The notes beneath the pieces were generated by a model. The model searched no databases. It was not told where the DNA came from and saw only the letters and a program-made list of their open reading frames with translations. A program made the translations under genes and the position numbers. From IMG/VR virus record IMGVR_UViG_3300031997_000052, positions 1 through 27,367 of that record: a stretch of DNA of 27,367 bases. One strand, 5' to 3'. Shown here in pieces: positions 555 through 9,064 of the stretch. How positions within the stretch are numbered: the stretch's first letter is position 1; every line of letters begins with the position of its first letter. This stretch comes from a virus.

Positions 555-604
555 AACTATAACTTATTTAAAAATAAATTTAACAACTGATTTGATTCAT
601 ACCA

Positions 605-677
605 GCATTCATTGCGCACTGTTGTTCTTGATTCGCTGTGCTCATGCACAACAGTCAAGTTCTTCGACAGTGCGAGT
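605..677 (-). repeat. 73-bp direct repeat, copy 2: solo right end of TnpB element E1
   Basis: These 73 bases are identical to 795-867, which is the 3' end of the tnpB gene of element E1 plus its downstream flank. The copies lie 190 bp apart in the same orientation. Each can fold into a nested hairpin: an outer stem GCACTGT/ACAGTGC (616-622 with 667-673), an inner CTTGA/TCAAG and a tip TGTGC-ATGA-GCACA. The identity stops on both sides, so this copy carries the right-end or guide-RNA scaffold part without the nuclease gene. The sequence just beyond it (604 downwards on the minus strand) differs from that beyond copy 1. Confidence 0.8.
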
Positions 678-755: not shown

Positions 756-794
756 ATTATCCACCCATTATGTATTATCAATAATGTTAACCCG

Positions 795-867
795 GCATTC
801 ATTGCGCACTGTTGTTCTTGATTCGCTGTGCTCATGCACAACAGTCAAGTTCTTCGACAGTGCGAGT
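795..867 (-). repeat. 73-bp direct repeat, copy 1: right end / putative guide-RNA scaffold of E1
   Basis: This copy covers the last 11 codons and stop of tnpB (832-867) and about 37 bases beyond it. The minus strand folds into a 58-base nested hairpin with an outer 7-bp stem (806-812 with 857-863). Overlap of the nuclease 3' end with a structured right end is the usual layout of omega-RNA (reRNA) in IS200/IS605-family TnpB loci, where the guide is the flank immediately after the element. Here that flank starts at about 794 and runs downwards. Confidence 0.65.
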
Positions 868-1938
868 TATGTGATTTCTTTTCTCAGAGGCAATGCCTTT
901 GCCCAACAATAGAGTATTAATCGCGGCATTTATGTCGCGATCATGCGTAGCTCCACAACTACAACTCCACTGTCTTACTGCAAGCCCGTCAAATCCACTC
1001 GGACCAGTTAGGTCTCCGCAATTTGAACAGGTCTTGGTGGAATTTCTGTTACTTACCAGAACTAATTCTCCAAATCCATCAATTCTTGACGCTAATTTGT
1101 GCTTTAGTAGTTCTCGTATTTTACCAAGTGCTAAATTGGCATACTGCTTTCCATATTTTTGAATTAATCCCTTAAAATTATCATCTGACCAATATATTTT
1201 TGCATATATTTTAGCTATTCCAGTTGTCAATTTATGGTGGTGATCAATTCTTTGATTTGTTATTTTTCTTTGTAGATATTTTAATTTTTTCGAGTTCTTT
1301 GATTTTCTCTGCAAATTACCAATTTTTTTCTCTGCGTCTTGATAAAATTTTGGAAAATCAATCTGTACTCCATCGCTTAATGTTAAACTTGTTTTTAATC
1401 CAGGATCAATTCCTGCTTCTTTTCCATCTGTTATTTCTATTTTGTCTCTGTTTTGGTCATAACAGCAACTCACATACCAACAATCAAATTTCTTGATTAA
1501 TGTGCATTTTTTTAATTTGCCCGTGAATTTACCTGGTTCACTAATCTTCAGAGTTGTCTTTAATCCAGGAATTTTTAATCTACCTGATTTATCAAATTTT
1601 ATATCACCTGCAAAATAAAAAGACTTCTTTTGTCTACAATTTTTATAATGCAATTTGTGAATCCCGTGTTTCTTAAAACTGGTCAACACCGCTTGAATAC
1701 AACAATTAATTAGAGCACTTGGAATTCCACATTTCTTGCTATGTCCTATTATTTTTTTAGATAATATACTTCGTAGTTGTAGGTCAGACATAAACATATA
1801 TGCAAACCAATTCTCATCAAGCTCGTACTTGATTTGATTAATTACCCAATTCTCAATCCCAATAGCACTCCACAAGAAGTCATTAAGTACTTCTTCTTGT
1901 TTCTTTGTTGGATAAATTTTGTGTGAAATATTAATCAT
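832..1938 (-). CDS. tnpB: TnpB-family RNA-guided nuclease homologue, probably catalytically dead
   Basis: The 368-residue length is normal for TnpB. The RuvC-I aspartate is in GIDPGLKTSL (D178), the zinc ribbon is CSNCG...CSCG (C304, C307, C326, C328), and the RuvC-III aspartate is in THDRDINAAI (D335). The RuvC-II position, normally an E in a string like IVIEDLN, reads KIYWSDDNFKGL, with Ser251 where the Glu should be. The alternative Glu of rearranged TnpBs, just before the TSKTCS-like string, is also absent (VSNRNSTKTCS, Asn297). E291 lies nearby and might substitute. Family knowledge says loss of this Glu removes DNA cleavage but can leave RNA-guided binding, as in TldR-type repressors. 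The C terminus overlaps the structured right end. An AGGAG-like motif lies about 18 bases before the ATG. Confidence 0.85.
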   Translation of the reverse strand: MINISHKIYPTKKQEEVLNDFLWSAIGIENWVINQIKYELDENWFAYMFMSDLQLRSILSKKIIGHSKKCGIPSALINCCIQAVLTSFKKHGIHKLHYKNCRQKKSFYFAGDIKFDKSGRLKIPGLKTTLKISEPGKFTGKLKKCTLIKKFDCWYVSCCYDQNRDKIEITDGKEAGIDPGLKTSLTLSDGVQIDFPKFYQDAEKKIGNLQRKSKNSKKLKYLQRKITNQRIDHHHKLTTGIAKIYAKIYWSDDNFKGLIQKYGKQYANLALGKIRELLKHKLASRIDGFGELVLVSNRNSTKTCSNCGDLTGPSGFDGLAVRQWSCSCGATHDRDINAAINTLLLGKGIASEKRNHITRTVEELDCCA

Positions 1939-1997
1939 AGAATATATTGTGGCTGCTCCTATAATATTTATCCACTGCTTTTGAACTTGCGCAATTC

Positions 1998-2060
1998 AAA
2001 TCAATTGGATGCCCAGCCAGTTGCACTACTCCCGTTGGTCGTCACAAAGCAACTTGGGGC
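1998..2060 (-). other. Conserved left-end block of E1 with hairpin
   Basis: Read on the minus strand, this stretch matches the block upstream of the second tnpB (23803-23864) over about 60 bases, with shared words TGCTTTGT, CTGGCTG and CAATTGATTT. A 6-bp stem pairs AGTTGC (2054-2049) with GCAACT (2024-2019). In the other element the same stem is GGCTGC with GCAGCT, giving a T-A to C-G compensatory change. A structured left end is expected for IS200/IS605-type transposition, where single-stranded hairpins are recognised; a leader RNA is the alternative. Confidence 0.6.
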
Positions 2061-2151
2061 TCCGCTCCGCGTTCGAATGATGATTATATAATGATTCGCT
2101 TTTAAAATCAAATCTAATTTATTAAAAAATCCATACATTTCCATCATTTTG

Positions 2152-2200: not shown

Positions 2201-2791
2201 ATGGCTACAATTACAGATATGGGTATTGCATCAAACTACAGAGGTATATTACAACCTAAGTTGAAAAACAGATGGCGTGTAACCTTTGTACAAATTGGTG
2301 GTGGATTGGCAGATTCACGTGACCTTACAATGCAAGCAGTTAAAGTGTCAAGACCACAATTAGATTTTGATGAAGTTGAAATACATCGTTATAACACAAT
2401 TGCATTTATTGCAACTAAACATAAGTGGTCTGAATGTACGATGACTGTTGAAGATGATGTTACCAGCGGTGCAACAAGTGTTGTTAGAGATCAACTTGAA
2501 AAGCAACAATTATTAATTGCACCTGGTTCAGGACCTTGGTTAGCTACAGCTCCTGAAGCATCAAAATATAAATTCGGAACGAGAATTGAAATGCTTGACG
2601 GTGGTATTAATATACTTGAAGTATGGCATCTTGAGGGTTGTTGGATTAAAAGTGCTAATTTTACAGATTTAGATTATTCAGATGGTGAAAAAGTGACTAT
2701 CGATCTTTCAGTAAGATTTGATCATGCGCATCAAGATATTATGGCATATACAACTGGTCAAGGTAATGCATTAGGTGGCGGTAGTATTTAA
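2201..2791 (+). CDS. Tail tube protein (T4 gp19-like)
   Basis: This 196-residue protein should polymerise into the inner tube of the contractile tail. The N-terminal half has the expected pattern for tube subunits: a short leader, a strand LKNRWRVTFVQI (about 21-32), then LTMQAVKVSRPQLDFDEVEI, a central YNTIAFIATKHKWSECTMTV and an acidic DDVTSG loop, ending in strands around DLDYSDGEKVTIDLSVRFDH. T4 gp19 is shorter (163 aa); the extra length here is in the region 90-150. The ATG follows GAGGATATTATAT, a good ribosome binding site, and a late promoter lies 41 bases upstream. It is the first gene of the plus-strand morphogenesis block. The call rests on fold-like pattern and context, not alignment. 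Confidence 0.72.
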   Translation: MATITDMGIASNYRGILQPKLKNRWRVTFVQIGGGLADSRDLTMQAVKVSRPQLDFDEVEIHRYNTIAFIATKHKWSECTMTVEDDVTSGATSVVRDQLEKQQLLIAPGSGPWLATAPEASKYKFGTRIEMLDGGINILEVWHLEGCWIKSANFTDLDYSDGEKVTIDLSVRFDHAHQDIMAYTTGQGNALGGGSI

Positions 2792-2796
2792 AGTTT

Positions 2797-4458
2797 ATGG
2801 CTATAAGTGATACTGTAACGTCTTATGGGTCGTCTCTACTCGGTGGTGTCTTTGATGCCACGGGTGCAGCGACCCAAGCTGGGCTTCAAGGTGTAGTAAA
2901 TACTGGTGTTTCTCAAACTATAGGTACGTATAATCAAGCTGTAAGACAAGGGCTTGGAATGGCTATGTCTCAAGGTACTAATAGTATTATGAATAGTATT
3001 GGGGTAAATTTACAAAATATACCTTATGTTGGTGGAATATTACAAAATGTAGTACAATCTGGTTTATATTCAGCAGCTACAGTATTTGAACATATTATTG
3101 ATGGAAATTTAACATTAAATAATTTACCTGGGTTTGGTAATTATAATGTTAATAAAATATTAAGTAATGATCCTGGTATTACTGGTAGTATTGCTAGTGG
3201 TATGAATGGATTGACAAATACGTTAACATCATTAACGAGTGGGTCACTTAATAATTTAGGTGTACCAAATTTTGTATCTAACGCAGTTCTTGGTGCATTA
3301 GGTCCAGGACAAGGACAAGGTCTAGGCGCAATCGGTACAAATGCGGCAGCTGGAAGTAGTATTGTAAGTGAAAAATCTTATGCATCTGTGTTAGATTATG
3401 GTAAAGCAAATTATACCCCAAAATTCAAATTTTTATATATTGTTAATATTCAATTTGTAGATGAATATAAAACTATAAACAACAGTTTTACATTTTTAAT
3501 TAAGAAATTTGAACGCCCTACAATTACAATTGAGCATGATGAAGTTAATTTTTATAATTTTCGATCTATGGTTCCAAAAAGAACAGTTTATAAACCATTT
3601 AATTTTGAAATACATGACGATATACAAAGTGAAGCGATGAAATTCGTAGTAGGATATCTGAGAAAAGTTAGCCCGATATTTAATACAACAAATGCAGATA
3701 GTTATGAGTCAAATAGTATGAATTATTTACGTGCATCTAGTTCTTATGGATTACAAACACGACACGACAATTTTAATGTTATTAATACCATAACAGTAAG
3801 TCATTTATATAATTTTAATGCAACAATGGATGTTTATACATTTCATAAACCAAAAATACTTGAAGTTACTTTAGGTGATTGGGATATGAGTGCAGGTACT
3901 GAAGGTAGTTCAATAAATATTAATATGGCTTATGACGGTTTTGATGTACAAGTTGGTGTTAAAGCAAAAGTACCTGGACAACCACTTGGATTACTCGATC
4001 TTATGGAAAATCAACATCCAGTTGATTTAGGTACAAATGATTCTAAAGGTGGAGTATTTGAGTCTAAACCGATAAAAGATTTGACATATTTAGATTCTGC
4101 ATCTCCAAATCAATCAGGTAATAATTCTTTTAGAATTATCAGTGAGGGTACAAGATTTGTAGCACCAGGTACCAATATTCCTCAAATTACTGATGCTAAA
4201 TTTATGCCTGCAGCTTCTGGTATTATACCAGGTAATGTTATTGATGCAGGATTAGCAAATGCACAAGTTGCAACAATGTCAACTTCTGCTAATAATATAA
4301 TTAATAATACAAATTATATAAGTAGTACATCACCTAAAATAATGCCATCGTTATCAGAAATGGCAGCCGGTGCCGTTATTCCAACTTCTGCACCGAAAGC
4401 ATCTGCAAATTCATTTATGAGAGATATGCAGGATGTTGGCGCAATGAATTACGGATAA
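2797..4458 (+). CDS. Tail tube/baseplate-like structural protein (gp48/gp54-like region)
   Basis: This is a 553-residue protein. Residues 1-200 are rich in Gly, Ser, Asn and Leu with weakly hydrophobic helices. Residues about 205-395 form a tube-like beta domain (FKFLYIVNIQF, FLIKKFERPTITIEHDEVNF, ILEVTLGDWDM, ININMAYDGFDVQV). The tail (395-553) is low-complexity. T4 gp48 and gp54, which cap the baseplate and start the tube, also carry a tube-like fold with extra segments, so a tube-initiator or baseplate-hub role is likely. It starts 5 bases after the tail tube stop with little ribosome binding site of its own, which suggests translational coupling. Exact T4 equivalence is uncertain. Confidence 0.5.
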   Translation: MAISDTVTSYGSSLLGGVFDATGAATQAGLQGVVNTGVSQTIGTYNQAVRQGLGMAMSQGTNSIMNSIGVNLQNIPYVGGILQNVVQSGLYSAATVFEHIIDGNLTLNNLPGFGNYNVNKILSNDPGITGSIASGMNGLTNTLTSLTSGSLNNLGVPNFVSNAVLGALGPGQGQGLGAIGTNAAAGSSIVSEKSYASVLDYGKANYTPKFKFLYIVNIQFVDEYKTINNSFTFLIKKFERPTITIEHDEVNFYNFRSMVPKRTVYKPFNFEIHDDIQSEAMKFVVGYLRKVSPIFNTTNADSYESNSMNYLRASSSYGLQTRHDNFNVINTITVSHLYNFNATMDVYTFHKPKILEVTLGDWDMSAGTEGSSININMAYDGFDVQVGVKAKVPGQPLGLLDLMENQHPVDLGTNDSKGGVFESKPIKDLTYLDSASPNQSGNNSFRIISEGTRFVAPGTNIPQITDAKFMPAASGIIPGNVIDAGLANAQVATMSTSANNIINNTNYISSTSPKIMPSLSEMAAGAVIPTSAPKASANSFMRDMQDVGAMNYG

Positions 4459-5097: not shown

Positions 5098-5523
5098 ATG
5101 ATACATACAACTACTGTTGAGCAAGTAATAGAACATCCATTAGAGAAGGTATTTGGGATTGAAACTGGTACAACTATTATTGATGTTATGCAAGTTGAAT
5201 CTGAAATAGTTGATGAAAAGTTATACGATGAAAAAGATGTTGAAATTGAAAACCAATATGAAAATATATACAACACAGCGTTATTAGCGTATGCAGCACA
5301 AGCAAGTACAGTTAGTATGGGAGCAGATCCTCGATGTCAAGCTCGTAATATGGAAGTTGCAAATGGGTTTTTAAATACAGCTCTCGCTGCAGCCAAAGAA
5401 AAAGCAAATCTAAAACAACAAAAAGAAAAAATAAAAACTGTTAAATCAACTGATACAAATATTACAAATAATAATTTAATAATGGATCGAGATGAGTTAT
5501 TAAGAATAATGATGAAACGGTAG
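5098..5523 (+). CDS. Small terminase subunit-like protein (T4 gp16-like)
   Basis: This 141-residue protein lies immediately upstream of the large terminase, the usual place of the small subunit that recognises DNA and stimulates the packaging ATPase. The pattern matches gp16: an acidic N-terminal arm (residues 30-55), a central helical core (NIYNTALLAYAAQAS, then DPRCQARNMEVANGFLNTAL at about 77-96 in the position of the conserved PR...E motif), a Lys/Gln-rich coiled coil (KEKANLKQQKEKIK), and a short C-terminal NNNLIMDRDELLRIMM segment resembling the terminal ELL motif of gp16 proteins. The ribosome binding site is weak (AAGCGAG). A late promoter lies 32 bases upstream. Confidence 0.65.
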   Translation: MIHTTTVEQVIEHPLEKVFGIETGTTIIDVMQVESEIVDEKLYDEKDVEIENQYENIYNTALLAYAAQASTVSMGADPRCQARNMEVANGFLNTALAAAKEKANLKQQKEKIKTVKSTDTNITNNNLIMDRDELLRIMMKR

Positions 5524-5601
5524 CAAATCCTTAAGCTGATAATGGAGATCAAGTGCACAGGGAGTATTTAAGCCCAGGTGAAATATAAAAGGAAATTATA
5601 A

Positions 5602-6492
5602 ATGGCAAAGAGAAACCCATATTTAAAAAAATCAGGTGTATTAGATGAATATACCGCAGAACAGATGCATGAATTAGTTCGTTGTGCAACTGACCCTATT
5701 TATTTTATTGATAATTATTGTAAGATTGTACATCCAGTATTGGGAGTAGTATCATTTAAATTACATGGATATCAACGTAATCTTATTCATAATTATCATA
5801 CTGCTTCTAATGTTATAGTGAAATCACCTCGACAAACAGGGAAATCGACAACAGCGAGTGCATTTTTACTTTGGTTTGCTATATTTCATGATAATAAACA
5901 TATATTAATTGTATCAAATAGAAATGCTGGTTCAATGGAAATGATAACTCGTATTGAATTCATGTATGAACATTTACCGCATTGGTTAAAACCATCCATT
6001 GATTCAGAACATTGGAATATGCATTCAAAATGGTTTAGTAATGGCTCAAAAATCGATTCAGAAGCGACAACTACACAATCAGGTCGAGGATTAGCAATAT
6101 CTCTTCTTTTCGGGGATGAATTCGGCCACGTGGACCCAAATGTTGCTGAATTATTTTGGACTGCAATTTCACCTACATTAGCAACAGGAGGTAAAGCTCT
6201 TATTGCGTCTACTCCAAATGGAGATCACAATCTTTACGCACAATTATGGAGAGGTGCACTTGCAGGTATTAATGGTTTTACACCAGTTGAAATTCAATGG
6301 GATGAACCACCTGGTAGAGATGAAGCATTTAAGCAAGAACAAATTGGTAAAATTGGGATTACTAAATGGTCCCAGGAATATGAATGCTTGCAAAGTGAAA
6401 CTATGATAAATATAATTGATGATCTCGGAAATGTTCGAGATATTTCTATTAAAGATTTATACATGGAGCTTGCAGAAAATGAATATACATGA
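5602..6492 (+). CDS. Large terminase N-terminal part fused to a short N-intein (IntN)
   Basis: Residues 1-261 are the packaging ATPase of a gp17-like terminase: Walker A SPRQTGKST (75-83), Walker B LLFGDE (168-173) and a coupling region ending in KWSQEYE. The reading then enters an intein at Cys262 (CLQSETMINIIDD...IKDLYMELAE), giving a 35-residue IntN with only intein block A, then TGA. The rest of the intein and the nuclease domain are in the separate gene at 6719-7903. The shape matches the AceL-TerL split intein known from an Antarctic lake metagenome (about 25-residue N part, same host protein). Trans-splicing would restore a roughly 546-residue terminase. The ribosome binding site AAAGGA precedes the ATG. 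The stop overlaps the start of an endonuclease relic. Confidence 0.9.
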   Translation: MAKRNPYLKKSGVLDEYTAEQMHELVRCATDPIYFIDNYCKIVHPVLGVVSFKLHGYQRNLIHNYHTASNVIVKSPRQTGKSTTASAFLLWFAIFHDNKHILIVSNRNAGSMEMITRIEFMYEHLPHWLKPSIDSEHWNMHSKWFSNGSKIDSEATTTQSGRGLAISLLFGDEFGHVDPNVAELFWTAISPTLATGGKALIASTPNGDHNLYAQLWRGALAGINGFTPVEIQWDEPPGRDEAFKQEQIGKIGITKWSQEYECLQSETMINIIDDLGNVRDISIKDLYMELAENEYT

Positions 6493-6741
6493 ACAATTAG
6501 CACAACCGTATGTTATTTCACCAATTGATAATAATACATATTGTAGAGCAAATGGTGGATTTTTAAGACATCTTAGAGCTAACGGATTTGAAAGTTATCA
6601 AGATTTTTTTGAAATAATATATCCGGATTTTTAAATAATATTGTCCTACATGAAATTGCAGCAGTAGAAAATTTACAAATGTTACCATGGAGAGAAAATT
6701 TATCAAAAGGATGTAAATATGAAACTAAATCACAATATTAA
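6479..6741 (+). pseudogene. Relic of an HNH-type homing endonuclease between the split-intein genes
   Basis: A 51-codon ORF opens at 6479, with GGAG ten bases upstream, and overlaps the IntN gene by 14 bases. It contains YCRANGGFLRHLRANGFESY and ends at 6634. A second frame, open from 6640 to a stop at 6741, overlaps the start of the IntC gene. It reads VENLQMLPWRENLSKGCKYE, which resembles the NLQLL...EN...K tail common in HNH/NUMOD-type homing endonucleases. The two pieces are in different frames and the catalytic centre is missing, so this looks like a free-standing endonuclease with an internal deletion and frameshift. Its overlaps with both intein halves fit the fractured-gene layout described for phage split inteins. 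Confidence 0.6.
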
Positions 6742-7903
6742 TAATTGGAAAATAAAAACACCAAATGGATACGAAACATTTGCGGGTGTTGCATATATGG
6801 GAGTATCTCAAACCTATAAACTTACATTTAATGATAATACAAATATAAAAGCCACTGATTCACATATATTTTTCTTGGAGGATAATACAGAAATATTTGT
6901 CAAAAATATTACACCAGGTATTATTTTGTCTGGAATTAAAAATAAAACAGTAATTGATATTGAGCTTGATGAATTAACAGAAGTGTATGATATTATCGAA
7001 ATACCATCACATACATTTTTTGCAAATGGAATATTAAGTCACAATTGTCAATTTATTTCCTCAGATCCACTATTAATTAATTCATTATACTTAGCTACAT
7101 ATCCAATTGAACAACCTCCTGAACCAGATGCAAGAGGAATTGTTTGGTTCGATACACTTGACCCTAATAAATCGTATATTATTGGTATAGACCCTGCTAC
7201 TGGTTCTGAAAATGATTATACAGTTATGAGTGTTTTTTCATTTCCAGATTTAGAACAAGTAGCTGAATTTAGATCAAATACAACTTCATCAGCTATTGTT
7301 TATACCACATTTAAGTATATGATTAAGAAAATGATATTTGCTAAAATTACAAATATATATTTTAGTGTTGAAAATAATGGTGTTGGAGAAGGGTTTATAG
7401 GTATTTACCAAACAGATGATGATTCTCCTGAATATGGAGAATTTATATCAGAAGAAGGTAAAAACCGAGCCGGTATGAATACTAGCGGTAAATCGAAATC
7501 AAAAGCTTGTATAAATTTTAAGAATTTATTTGAAGGTGGTAGAATAAAAGTTAAATCTAAACATGCTATCATTGAAATGAAAGATTTTGTTAGGCAAGCT
7601 GGTAGTTATGGTGCTCGTAGAGGTGCAACAGATGATTGTATTGCATCTATGTTAATTGTTGTGCGTATATTGGATGAATTAGTGCAGTATGAGGATAATG
7701 TGTATGAAGTGTTGTATAACACAGGTTTGATTAATGAGTTCGATTCAAGTAGTAAACCTACTATAGATGATGCACCTACTCCTATGGTAATTGGAGGTGG
7801 TTTTTATGAGTCGAAATATGCGCATTATAAAATTGGAAAATTTCATGACGTAAATGATCCAAATTCTTTTGATCCATGGGGTGATTACCCATTTTTAGGT
7901 TGA
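6719..7903 (+). CDS. C-intein (IntC) fused to the large terminase nuclease domain
   Basis: Residues 1-109 are the C part of the split intein: WKIKTPNGYETFAG, block B TDSH (TxxH, 47-50), block F EVYDIIEIPSHTFFANG and block G ILSHN ending at Asn109. Cys110 is the +1 extein residue (CQFISSDPLL). Residues 110-394 complete the terminase: the RNase-H-like nuclease has D158 (IIGIDPATG), E218 (YFSVENNGVG) and D305/D306 (GATDDCIASML), the usual acidic set of gp17 proteins. The ATG at 6719 follows AAAAGGATG, so the gene has its own ribosome binding site. All splice-site residues (Cys1, TxxH, His-Asn, Cys+1) are present across the two genes, so trans-splicing is plausible. Confidence 0.9.
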   Translation: MKLNHNINNWKIKTPNGYETFAGVAYMGVSQTYKLTFNDNTNIKATDSHIFFLEDNTEIFVKNITPGIILSGIKNKTVIDIELDELTEVYDIIEIPSHTFFANGILSHNCQFISSDPLLINSLYLATYPIEQPPEPDARGIVWFDTLDPNKSYIIGIDPATGSENDYTVMSVFSFPDLEQVAEFRSNTTSSAIVYTTFKYMIKKMIFAKITNIYFSVENNGVGEGFIGIYQTDDDSPEYGEFISEEGKNRAGMNTSGKSKSKACINFKNLFEGGRIKVKSKHAIIEMKDFVRQAGSYGARRGATDDCIASMLIVVRILDELVQYEDNVYEVLYNTGLINEFDSSSKPTIDDAPTPMVIGGGFYESKYAHYKIGKFHDVNDPNSFDPWGDYPFLG

Positions 7904-7957
7904 TTAATATGTAATTATATATTATAATTAATCATTAATTAAAGAGAATAATGAATA

Positions 7958-9064
7958 ATGAATAATAAATTTAAATTACTTGCATATCATCTTATGCAAA
8001 GTAGCGATATATTTTATAAAATGAAATGTACTATAGAAGGTAGTATGCATCATCGTGAAGCAAATGTATTAGTACATACATATATGGTATTAAATGAATA
8101 TTTTGACTTAACTACACATAAATGGAAGTTGTGTGATTTAGAAGGTGCATTTGCGTGTTTATTTCATGATGTTGGTAAACCAGCAGCTGAAGTAAATAAA
8201 TTTTCAGAAGAACGAGGACACTATCATAGTTATCCAGGTCACGAGCTTATTTCAGCTAGAATTTGGGAAAATTGGGCAGTTGAACATTATGGAATATTGA
8301 TTTATTTTTTCCCCTGTTTTAATTTTCAAAGTATTTATAATATTGGTTGGATGATAGAACATCATCTACCGTATGATATTAAAAATAAATATAAACTTGA
8401 ATGTATTTACAAAACAGGAAAATCAATAGGTGAAAATACATTTACTAATGTGTTACTTGCTGATGGTAGAGGTCGTATAAACGACAACGCAGAAGCACAA
8501 GGTATTAGACAACAAACATGGTTGAATGCATATACAAACTATGAAGGTTCACCTGATGTTATAATCGGTGATAGACATGTACATATGATTATTGGACCAT
8601 CTGGAGTAGGTAAATCTACTATAACAAATAAATTAGTTAACGACTGTACACCTGATGTAATTGCTGTATTTTCTTTGGATAAACTTAGACTTGATTGGTA
8701 TTCTGATTTATTAATTATGAACCCAAATGAGCAATATGACTATGTACATGAAGCTGCATTATCTGATCCAAAATTCAATGGTAGATGGCAAAGAGAGTAC
8801 GTAAATTTAGTAAAAAGTTCTGTAAAAATGATTATCATTGATGGTACTAACCTATTTACAAAACATCGTAGATTTTTTCTCGATGTGGCTCGAAACAACG
8901 ATATAGTTACACATGCAGTTTATTTAACATCATCATTAAAAATCTTAGAACAGCGACAAAATGCACGAACTGATAAAATTGTTGATATGAATATAGTTAA
9001 AAAACAATATGCAAATATACAATACCCATCATATAATGAATTTGATGTAATTCATATAATATAA
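7958..9064 (+). CDS. HD-domain / polynucleotide-kinase fusion
   Basis: This 368-residue protein has two domains. Residues about 30-190 form an HD-type metal phosphohydrolase: H40, the HD pair at 70-71 (CLFHDVGKP), H95 in YPGHE, HH at 135-136 and the late aspartate in LLADGRGR (D169). Residues about 205-368 form a P-loop kinase: Walker A GPSGVGKST (213-221), IIIDGTN and a lid region with EQRQNARTDKIV, as in T4 PNK-like kinases. Such fusions are expected to act in nucleic-acid end repair, removing a phosphate or cyclic phosphate and adding a 5' phosphate; the substrate is not shown by the sequence. It follows the terminase by 54 bases, with an AT-rich inverted repeat near 7904-7936. Of several nearby ATGs only 7958 gives a long frame. 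Confidence 0.75.
   Translation: MNNKFKLLAYHLMQSSDIFYKMKCTIEGSMHHREANVLVHTYMVLNEYFDLTTHKWKLCDLEGAFACLFHDVGKPAAEVNKFSEERGHYHSYPGHELISARIWENWAVEHYGILIYFFPCFNFQSIYNIGWMIEHHLPYDIKNKYKLECIYKTGKSIGENTFTNVLLADGRGRINDNAEAQGIRQQTWLNAYTNYEGSPDVIIGDRHVHMIIGPSGVGKSTITNKLVNDCTPDVIAVFSLDKLRLDWYSDLLIMNPNEQYDYVHEAALSDPKFNGRWQREYVNLVKSSVKMIIIDGTNLFTKHRRFFLDVARNNDIVTHAVYLTSSLKILEQRQNARTDKIVDMNIVKKQYANIQYPSYNEFDVIHII

What the first reader, a model, noticed from the sequence alone, without database searches (positions are those of the whole stretch)
5602..7903. Large terminase split into two genes by an atypical short-N split intein
The terminase is cut between QEYE and CQF. The first gene carries a 35-residue IntN with only block A (Cys262). 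The second begins with a 109-residue IntC holding TxxH, the vYDi...HTFFANG block and SHN|C. Cys1, TxxH, His-Asn and Cys+1 are all present, so trans-splicing should work. The break point lies early in the intein, as in AceL-TerL, and the IntN and IntC strings resemble it (ETM...DLY..LA; KI.(S/T)PNG). Most natural split inteins break late, so this is a rare class and the sequence looks new.
Basis: partly seen in the sequence, partly recalled or inferred. Interest (0 to 1): 0.88.

Follow-up and report, generated by a model that had tools for sequence, protein, structure and literature searches.

The report
Phage packaging enzyme with split intein
A phage's DNA-packaging motor protein is encoded as two separate genes whose ends carry the halves of a self-splicing protein element (an intein) that should stitch the two products into one enzyme; this is a new, divergent example of a type already known from many phages, here with the decayed remains of the nuclease gene that usually sits between the halves.

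Summary
TerL is encoded as two genes (5602-6492, 6719-7903). They are separated by a split intein with a 35-aa IntN (6385-6489) and a 109-aa IntC (6719-7045), inserted at QEYE|CQF, with all class-1 catalytic residues present. Two other IMG/VR contigs carry the identical split. Two ~79%-identical relatives have the empty site, so the 661-bp insertion is real and not an assembly error. IntC matches the consensus atypical TerL intein Cat (PDB 6dsl, E=1e-7), and its predicted fold retrieves inteins. Mechanism: most likely protein trans-splicing to a 546-aa TerL (splicing itself untested).

The novelty is overstated. The same short-N split at this TerL motif occurs in sequenced phages (PX29 gp17A/17B, PSTRCR_127, 92A1). 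It is common in IMG/VR: at least 63 of 80 retrieved loci, usually with a GIY-YIG homing endonuclease in the gap. AceL-TerL, GOS-TerL and Cat are published.

The split persists after its endonuclease died. The intein is a deep branch, about 34% identical at most to any found. Verdict: new member of a known kind.

The parts
5589..5593 (+). Shine-Dalgarno-like AAGGA of terL-N
   Evidence: sequence
5602..6384 (+). TerL N-extein (ATPase domain, residues 1-261, Walker A SPRQTGKST, Walker B LLFGDE)
   Evidence: Pfam Terminase_6N E=1.6e-13; PHROG 5989 E=5e-48; 51% identity to XacN1 TerL
6385..6489 (+). IntN, 35 aa CLQSETMINIIDDLGNVRDISIKDLYMELAENEYT: Cys1, block A and first helix; stop TGA 6490-6492
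   Evidence: aligns with IntN of PSTRCR_127, 92A1, PX29, EniLVp02 and AceL (AceL from memory)
6479..6634 (+). 51-aa ORF in the gap overlapping the IntN end; probably the N-terminal remnant of the lost homing endonuclease, identity inferred only
   Evidence: no family or phage hit; position matches the nested HEGs of PSTRCR_127 and 92A1
6631..6741 (+). C-terminal remnant of an HNH homing endonuclease (LNNIVLHEIAAVENLQMLPWRENLSKGCKYETKSQY*), different frame from the 51-aa ORF, overlapping the IntC start
   Evidence: phrog_5104 E=1.2e-5 (profile 173-200/228) and phrog_1035 endonuclease VII E=0.0067; 46% over 35 aa to Bp7 homolog, shuffle z=11
6707..6711 (+). Shine-Dalgarno-like AAGGA of terL-C
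   Evidence: sequence
6719..7045 (+). IntC, 109 aa: TxxH block B (T46-H49), block F, block G with H108-N109
   Evidence: PDB 6dsl_B CatC E=1e-7; predicted fold retrieves gp41-1, VidaL, Npu DnaE and Cat inteins
7046..7900 (+). TerL C-extein (RNase H-like nuclease domain, 285 aa, begins Cys+1 CQFISSD)
   Evidence: Pfam Terminase_6C E=2e-7; 41% identity to XacN1 TerL; 81% to empty-site relative L036

Best explanation
A naturally split class-1 intein of the atypical, short-IntN (S2 site) TerL type interrupts the large terminase of a XacN1-like phage. SHOWN: a 661-bp element (6385-7045) sits between E261 and the next Cys of TerL, an empty site in close relatives. Both extein halves and both intein halves are intact, each reading frame starts with a ribosome-binding site, and all class-1 catalytic residues are there. 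The gap carries HNH homing-endonuclease debris lacking the catalytic D-H segment. INFERRED: the two proteins are made separately. The short IntN docks into the nearly complete IntC, Cys1 makes the thioester (assisted by T46/H49), Cys+1 attacks it, Asn109 cyclises (assisted by H108), and a peptide bond joins the halves into a 546-aa TerL. An HNH homing endonuclease nested between the halves once spread the element and later decayed by deletion and frameshift, leaving a split intein that can no longer home by itself.
For: Reading frames, boundaries and residues. Cat match E=1e-7. Same architecture in PX29 ('putative N-intein', 'GIY-YIG endonuclease and C-intein'), PSTRCR_127 and 92A1. Identical locus in two further contigs. 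Empty site in L036/L037. Purifying selection on both halves against L036, dN/dS about 0.06 and 0.10. HNH relic: phrog_5104 E=1.2e-5, endonuclease VII profile 0.0067, 46% identity to the Bp7 homolog with z=11. Decay series in IMG/VR: intact HEG, HEG lost, contiguous. Intein fold from AF2 plus Foldseek.
Against: Splicing was not observed. The IntC model is only moderately confident (mean pLDDT 73.6, TM about 0.4-0.5; IntN absent). dN/dS covers divergence that may mostly predate the insertion. The 51-aa gap ORF has no detectable homolog, so calling it the N-terminal part of the HEG is inference from position.
Confidence: 0.88

Rival explanations
1. A two-piece terminase that works without splicing: the ATPase and nuclease domains act as separate subunits and the intein halves are inert or only hold them together.
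For: The break falls near the boundary between the ATPase and nuclease domains; functional genes-in-pieces are known (a ribonucleotide reductase, cited in PMC10448857).
Against: All catalytic splicing residues are kept in an intein only about 34% identical to its nearest relative; the class includes active splicers AceL, GOS and Cat; an inert intein should lose Cys1, Asn109 or Cys+1.
Confidence: 0.06
2. A pseudogene: the split terminase is broken and the phage lineage is defective.
For: The gap shows decay (relic HEG); the window is a fragment.
Against: Both halves are fully open with conserved motifs and ribosome-binding sites; the same allele is found in two further contigs; purifying selection.
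Confidence: 0.03
3. A group I/II intron or translational bypass joins the two frames at RNA level, rather than an intein.
For: Phage terL introns exist (ICP1, PMC10448857).
Against: No Rfam match in 5500-8000 even at E<=1; IntN and IntC are recognisable protein sequences in frame with each extein.
Confidence: 0.02

Closest known systems
Cat / AceL-TerL / GOS-TerL atypical split inteins
   Same: TerL host, split after the first helix (S2), short IntN (25-37 aa), IntC about 103-109 aa, class-1 block B and HN|C; Cat IntC matches at E=1e-7
   Different: About 33% identical in IntC; Cys1 unlike GOS-TerL Ser1; XacN1-like TerL host; HNH relic instead of GIY-YIG HEG
Split TerL inteins of cultured phages (Aeromonas PX29 17A/17B, Providencia PSTRCR_127, Serratia 92A1, Vibrio EniLVp02)
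   Same: Same TerL motif and short IntN; in PSTRCR_127 and 92A1 a HEG gene nested between and overlapping both halves
   Different: Their HEGs are GIY-YIG type or absent; in PX29, PSTRCR_127 and 92A1 the insertion is at QEH|C, one codon from the window's QEYE|C
Vibrio phage Va1 TerL-C intein
   Same: Highest IntC identity found, about 34%
   Different: A DUF559-containing (Vsr-like) nuclease is fused to IntC
Fractured genes with split inteins and HEG in the gap (Dassa et al. 2009, cited in PMC6892783; e.g. MIJ3 PolB with HNH orf154)
   Same: Split intein with an HNH nuclease between halves
   Different: The HEG here is a non-functional relic; different host gene

Membership tests
Atypical (S2-split) TerL split inteins | Short IntN (15-37 aa) with block A and first helix, no block B | tested here: met
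   35 aa, ends after ISIKDLYMELAENE; size and S2 definition from PMC13014065
Atypical (S2-split) TerL split inteins | IntC with blocks B, F and G and sequence homology to AceL/Cat | tested here: met
   PDB 6dsl_B E=1e-7; T46-H49, H108, N109
Atypical (S2-split) TerL split inteins | Inserted at the conserved TerL QE-x-x-C-x-F motif | tested here: met
   QEYE|CQF; relatives QEHN|CSF, EFE|CEF; empty site in L036/L037 and XacN1
Atypical (S2-split) TerL split inteins | Class-1 nucleophiles Cys1, Asn, Cys+1 | tested here: met
   Cys262, N109, Cys110
Atypical (S2-split) TerL split inteins | Protein trans-splicing activity | not testable with these tools
   needs expression and mass spectrometry
Atypical (S2-split) TerL split inteins | HINT fold | tested here: inconclusive
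   IntC alone pLDDT 73.6; all top Foldseek hits are inteins at probability 1.00, but TM is only 0.4-0.5
Fractured gene with active homing endonuclease | Intact HEG between the halves | tested here: not met
   only a 51-aa ORF and a frameshifted C-terminal HNH remnant
Group I/II intron in terL | Conserved intron RNA structure | tested here: not met
   no Rfam match at E<=1

The most novel reading that the evidence does not exclude
The split is kept by selection after the endonuclease died: separate production of the halves (with the still-open 51-aa gap ORF) tunes when active terminase appears, i.e. trans-splicing acts as a packaging switch.
Probability: 0.07. Interest if true: 0.75.

Novelty: new member of a known kind. 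Interest (0 to 1): 0.32.

Why it matters
It adds a deeply diverged short-IntN split intein, useful as a possible orthogonal labelling tool, outside the GIY-YIG-bearing clade that dominates the searches. It also catches the endonuclease-decay step of the split-intein life cycle, with an empty-site relative at about 79% nucleotide identity for comparison. The relatives collected here (intact HEG, HEG lost, and one contiguous copy, L096) form a series for testing how split inteins arise, decay and re-fuse.

Tried and rejected
Assembly-error idea: rejected by L001/L002. RNA intron: no Rfam match. Phage tblastn with the 51-aa gap ORF gave only chance hits, E>=3, and it aligns with no tested HEG better than marginally, so its origin stays inferred. 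Profile alignment A2 was too divergent for a collection scan. Scans with the PSTRCR_127 and Va1 IntC found no relatives in IMG/VR. The intein tree is poorly resolved with long branches; only the Cat-like clade is well supported. A joined IntN-IntC model was not attempted because the joined sequence is not a direct translation of the window. The original GOS-TerL, Cat and Dassa papers are not held, so later papers citing them were used. AceL letters were from memory and only supplementary.

Full report
Observation. TerL-N is 5602-6492; Cys262 opens a 35-residue IntN. TerL-C is 6719-7903; residues 1-109 are IntC, ending SHN before Cys+1. The halves are in different frames and the inserted segment 6385-7045 is 661 nt, not a multiple of three. 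No frame is open through the gap. The two joined exteins would give 546 residues.

It is real. Two other IMG/VR contigs, L001 and L002, carry the same locus at 99.99-100% nucleotide identity; the only L001 difference lies at window 2014. Two relatives, L036 and L037, about 79% identical in nucleotides over TerL, are uninterrupted: SQEYE|CVFISSDPLL. L036 and L037 are 99.96% identical to each other, so they count as one lineage. That comparison defines the insertion to the residue. Xanthomonas phage XacN1 also has the uninterrupted gene. Between the window and L036 both TerL halves show strong constraint, dN/dS 0.06 and 0.10, though much of that divergence may be older than the insertion.

It is an intein of the AceL/Cat kind. 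IntC's best solved relative is CatC, the consensus atypical intein (PDB 6dsl, E=1e-7), followed by gp41-1, Spl DnaX and VidaL. A 22-sequence AlphaFold2 model of IntC alone (pLDDT 73.6) retrieves only inteins at the top of the PDB search, Cat among them. Class-1 residues are complete: Cys1, T46xxH49, H108, N109, Cys+1. The split follows the first helix, the S2 site described for AceL-TerL and GOS-TerL, with published IntN lengths of 25 and 37 aa (PMC11766414; PMC13014065).

The class is not rare. Cultured phages have the same short-IntN split at this TerL motif: PX29 gp17A/17B (already annotated as N-intein and GIY-YIG plus C-intein), PSTRCR_127, Serratia 92A1, EniLVp02, VP-1 and the K469 group. 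A Cat query in IMG/VR found 125 relatives, of which 80 were kept. In the automatic classification 54 of 80 have IntN and a gap of about 590 bp, five have a gap under 60 bp, and one (L096) is contiguous. Four more loci missed by the pattern were read by hand and also have IntN and a GIY-YIG gap gene, giving at least 63 split loci. Sixteen were not assigned, most of them cut by contig ends. The gap genes sampled are GIY-YIG endonucleases.

What is particular here. First, the intein is a long branch, about 34% identical at most to any intact homolog in the tree, and its host TerL is nearest to XacN1 and the Stenotrophomonas phages CM1/RAS14 rather than to cyanophages. Second, the gap holds a decayed nuclease gene of another type. 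The frame-1 stretch 6631-6741 (LNNIVLHEIAAVENLQMLPWRENLSKG...) matches the end of phrog_5104 (E=1.2e-5) and the endonuclease VII family (0.0067). Phage Bp7, Acj133 and AS-zj homologs align at 46-48%; Acj133's copy itself splits rnlA. Those proteins have an LDH segment just upstream; the window lacks it, so the catalytic part is gone. A 51-aa ORF (6479-6634) fills the start of the gap in another frame, without any detectable homolog. The relic C-terminus overlaps the IntC start and the 51-aa ORF overlaps the IntN end, the same nested layout as the intact HEGs of PSTRCR_127 and 92A1. I infer one HNH HEG that lost its middle and its frame.

Mechanism. Shown: insertion, intact halves, residues, relic. 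Inferred: separate translation, docking of IntN into IntC, and standard class-1 splicing to full TerL. Also inferred: past mobility by the HNH enzyme and its later loss. Rivals (unspliced two-piece enzyme, pseudogene, RNA intron) are unlikely but only the intron was directly tested.

Verdict. A confirmed, well-formed split intein; a new and divergent member of a known family with a dead homing endonuclease. Interest is moderate to low.

Noticed in passing
window 792-2075: IS200/IS605-type TnpB element (TnpB ORF 832-1938, minus strand; Cas12f1-like TNB E=4e-15) that is cleanly absent from the near-identical contig L002, which reads ...ATGTTAAC|AATGATG....
   Followed up: partly
window 602-676: A solitary 75-bp copy (74/75 identical) of the element end at 792-866, the end beyond the TnpB stop codon, with a strong hairpin; also absent from L002. 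Could be a solo element end.
   Followed up: partly
L096 3294-3707: A contiguous (cis) version of the AceL/Cat-type TerL intein: IntN runs straight into IntC in one frame, about 126 aa.
   Followed up: partly
L100, L103, L115 (also L085, L109): Split TerL inteins whose gap is only 6 bp (L100, L103, L115), or otherwise under 60 bp, with no room for an endonuclease: split kept after complete HEG loss.
   Followed up: partly
L026 834-4176 (Vibrio phage VP-1): TerL carries two inteins: a contiguous one in Walker A (SGK|C...SHN|TT) and the split one at QEYD|C with a GIY-YIG domain fused to IntN.
   Followed up: no
L003 1-2439: A TerL C-part with IntC at the Walker B site (HN|CLAIDEAAF), preceded in frame by a possible Vsr-like nuclease; IntN lies off the contig.
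   Followed up: no
L024, L028, L029: Insertion in these phages is at QEH|C(A/C), one codon earlier than the window's QEYE|C, so the same motif is hit in two registers.
   Followed up: no
window 7958-9064: Gene after TerL fuses a weak HD-like region to an AAA_33/polynucleotide-kinase domain.
   Followed up: no
window 2201-4458: Two adjacent tail-tube-like genes; the second (553 aa) carries a tail-tube domain at residues 205-389.
   Followed up: no
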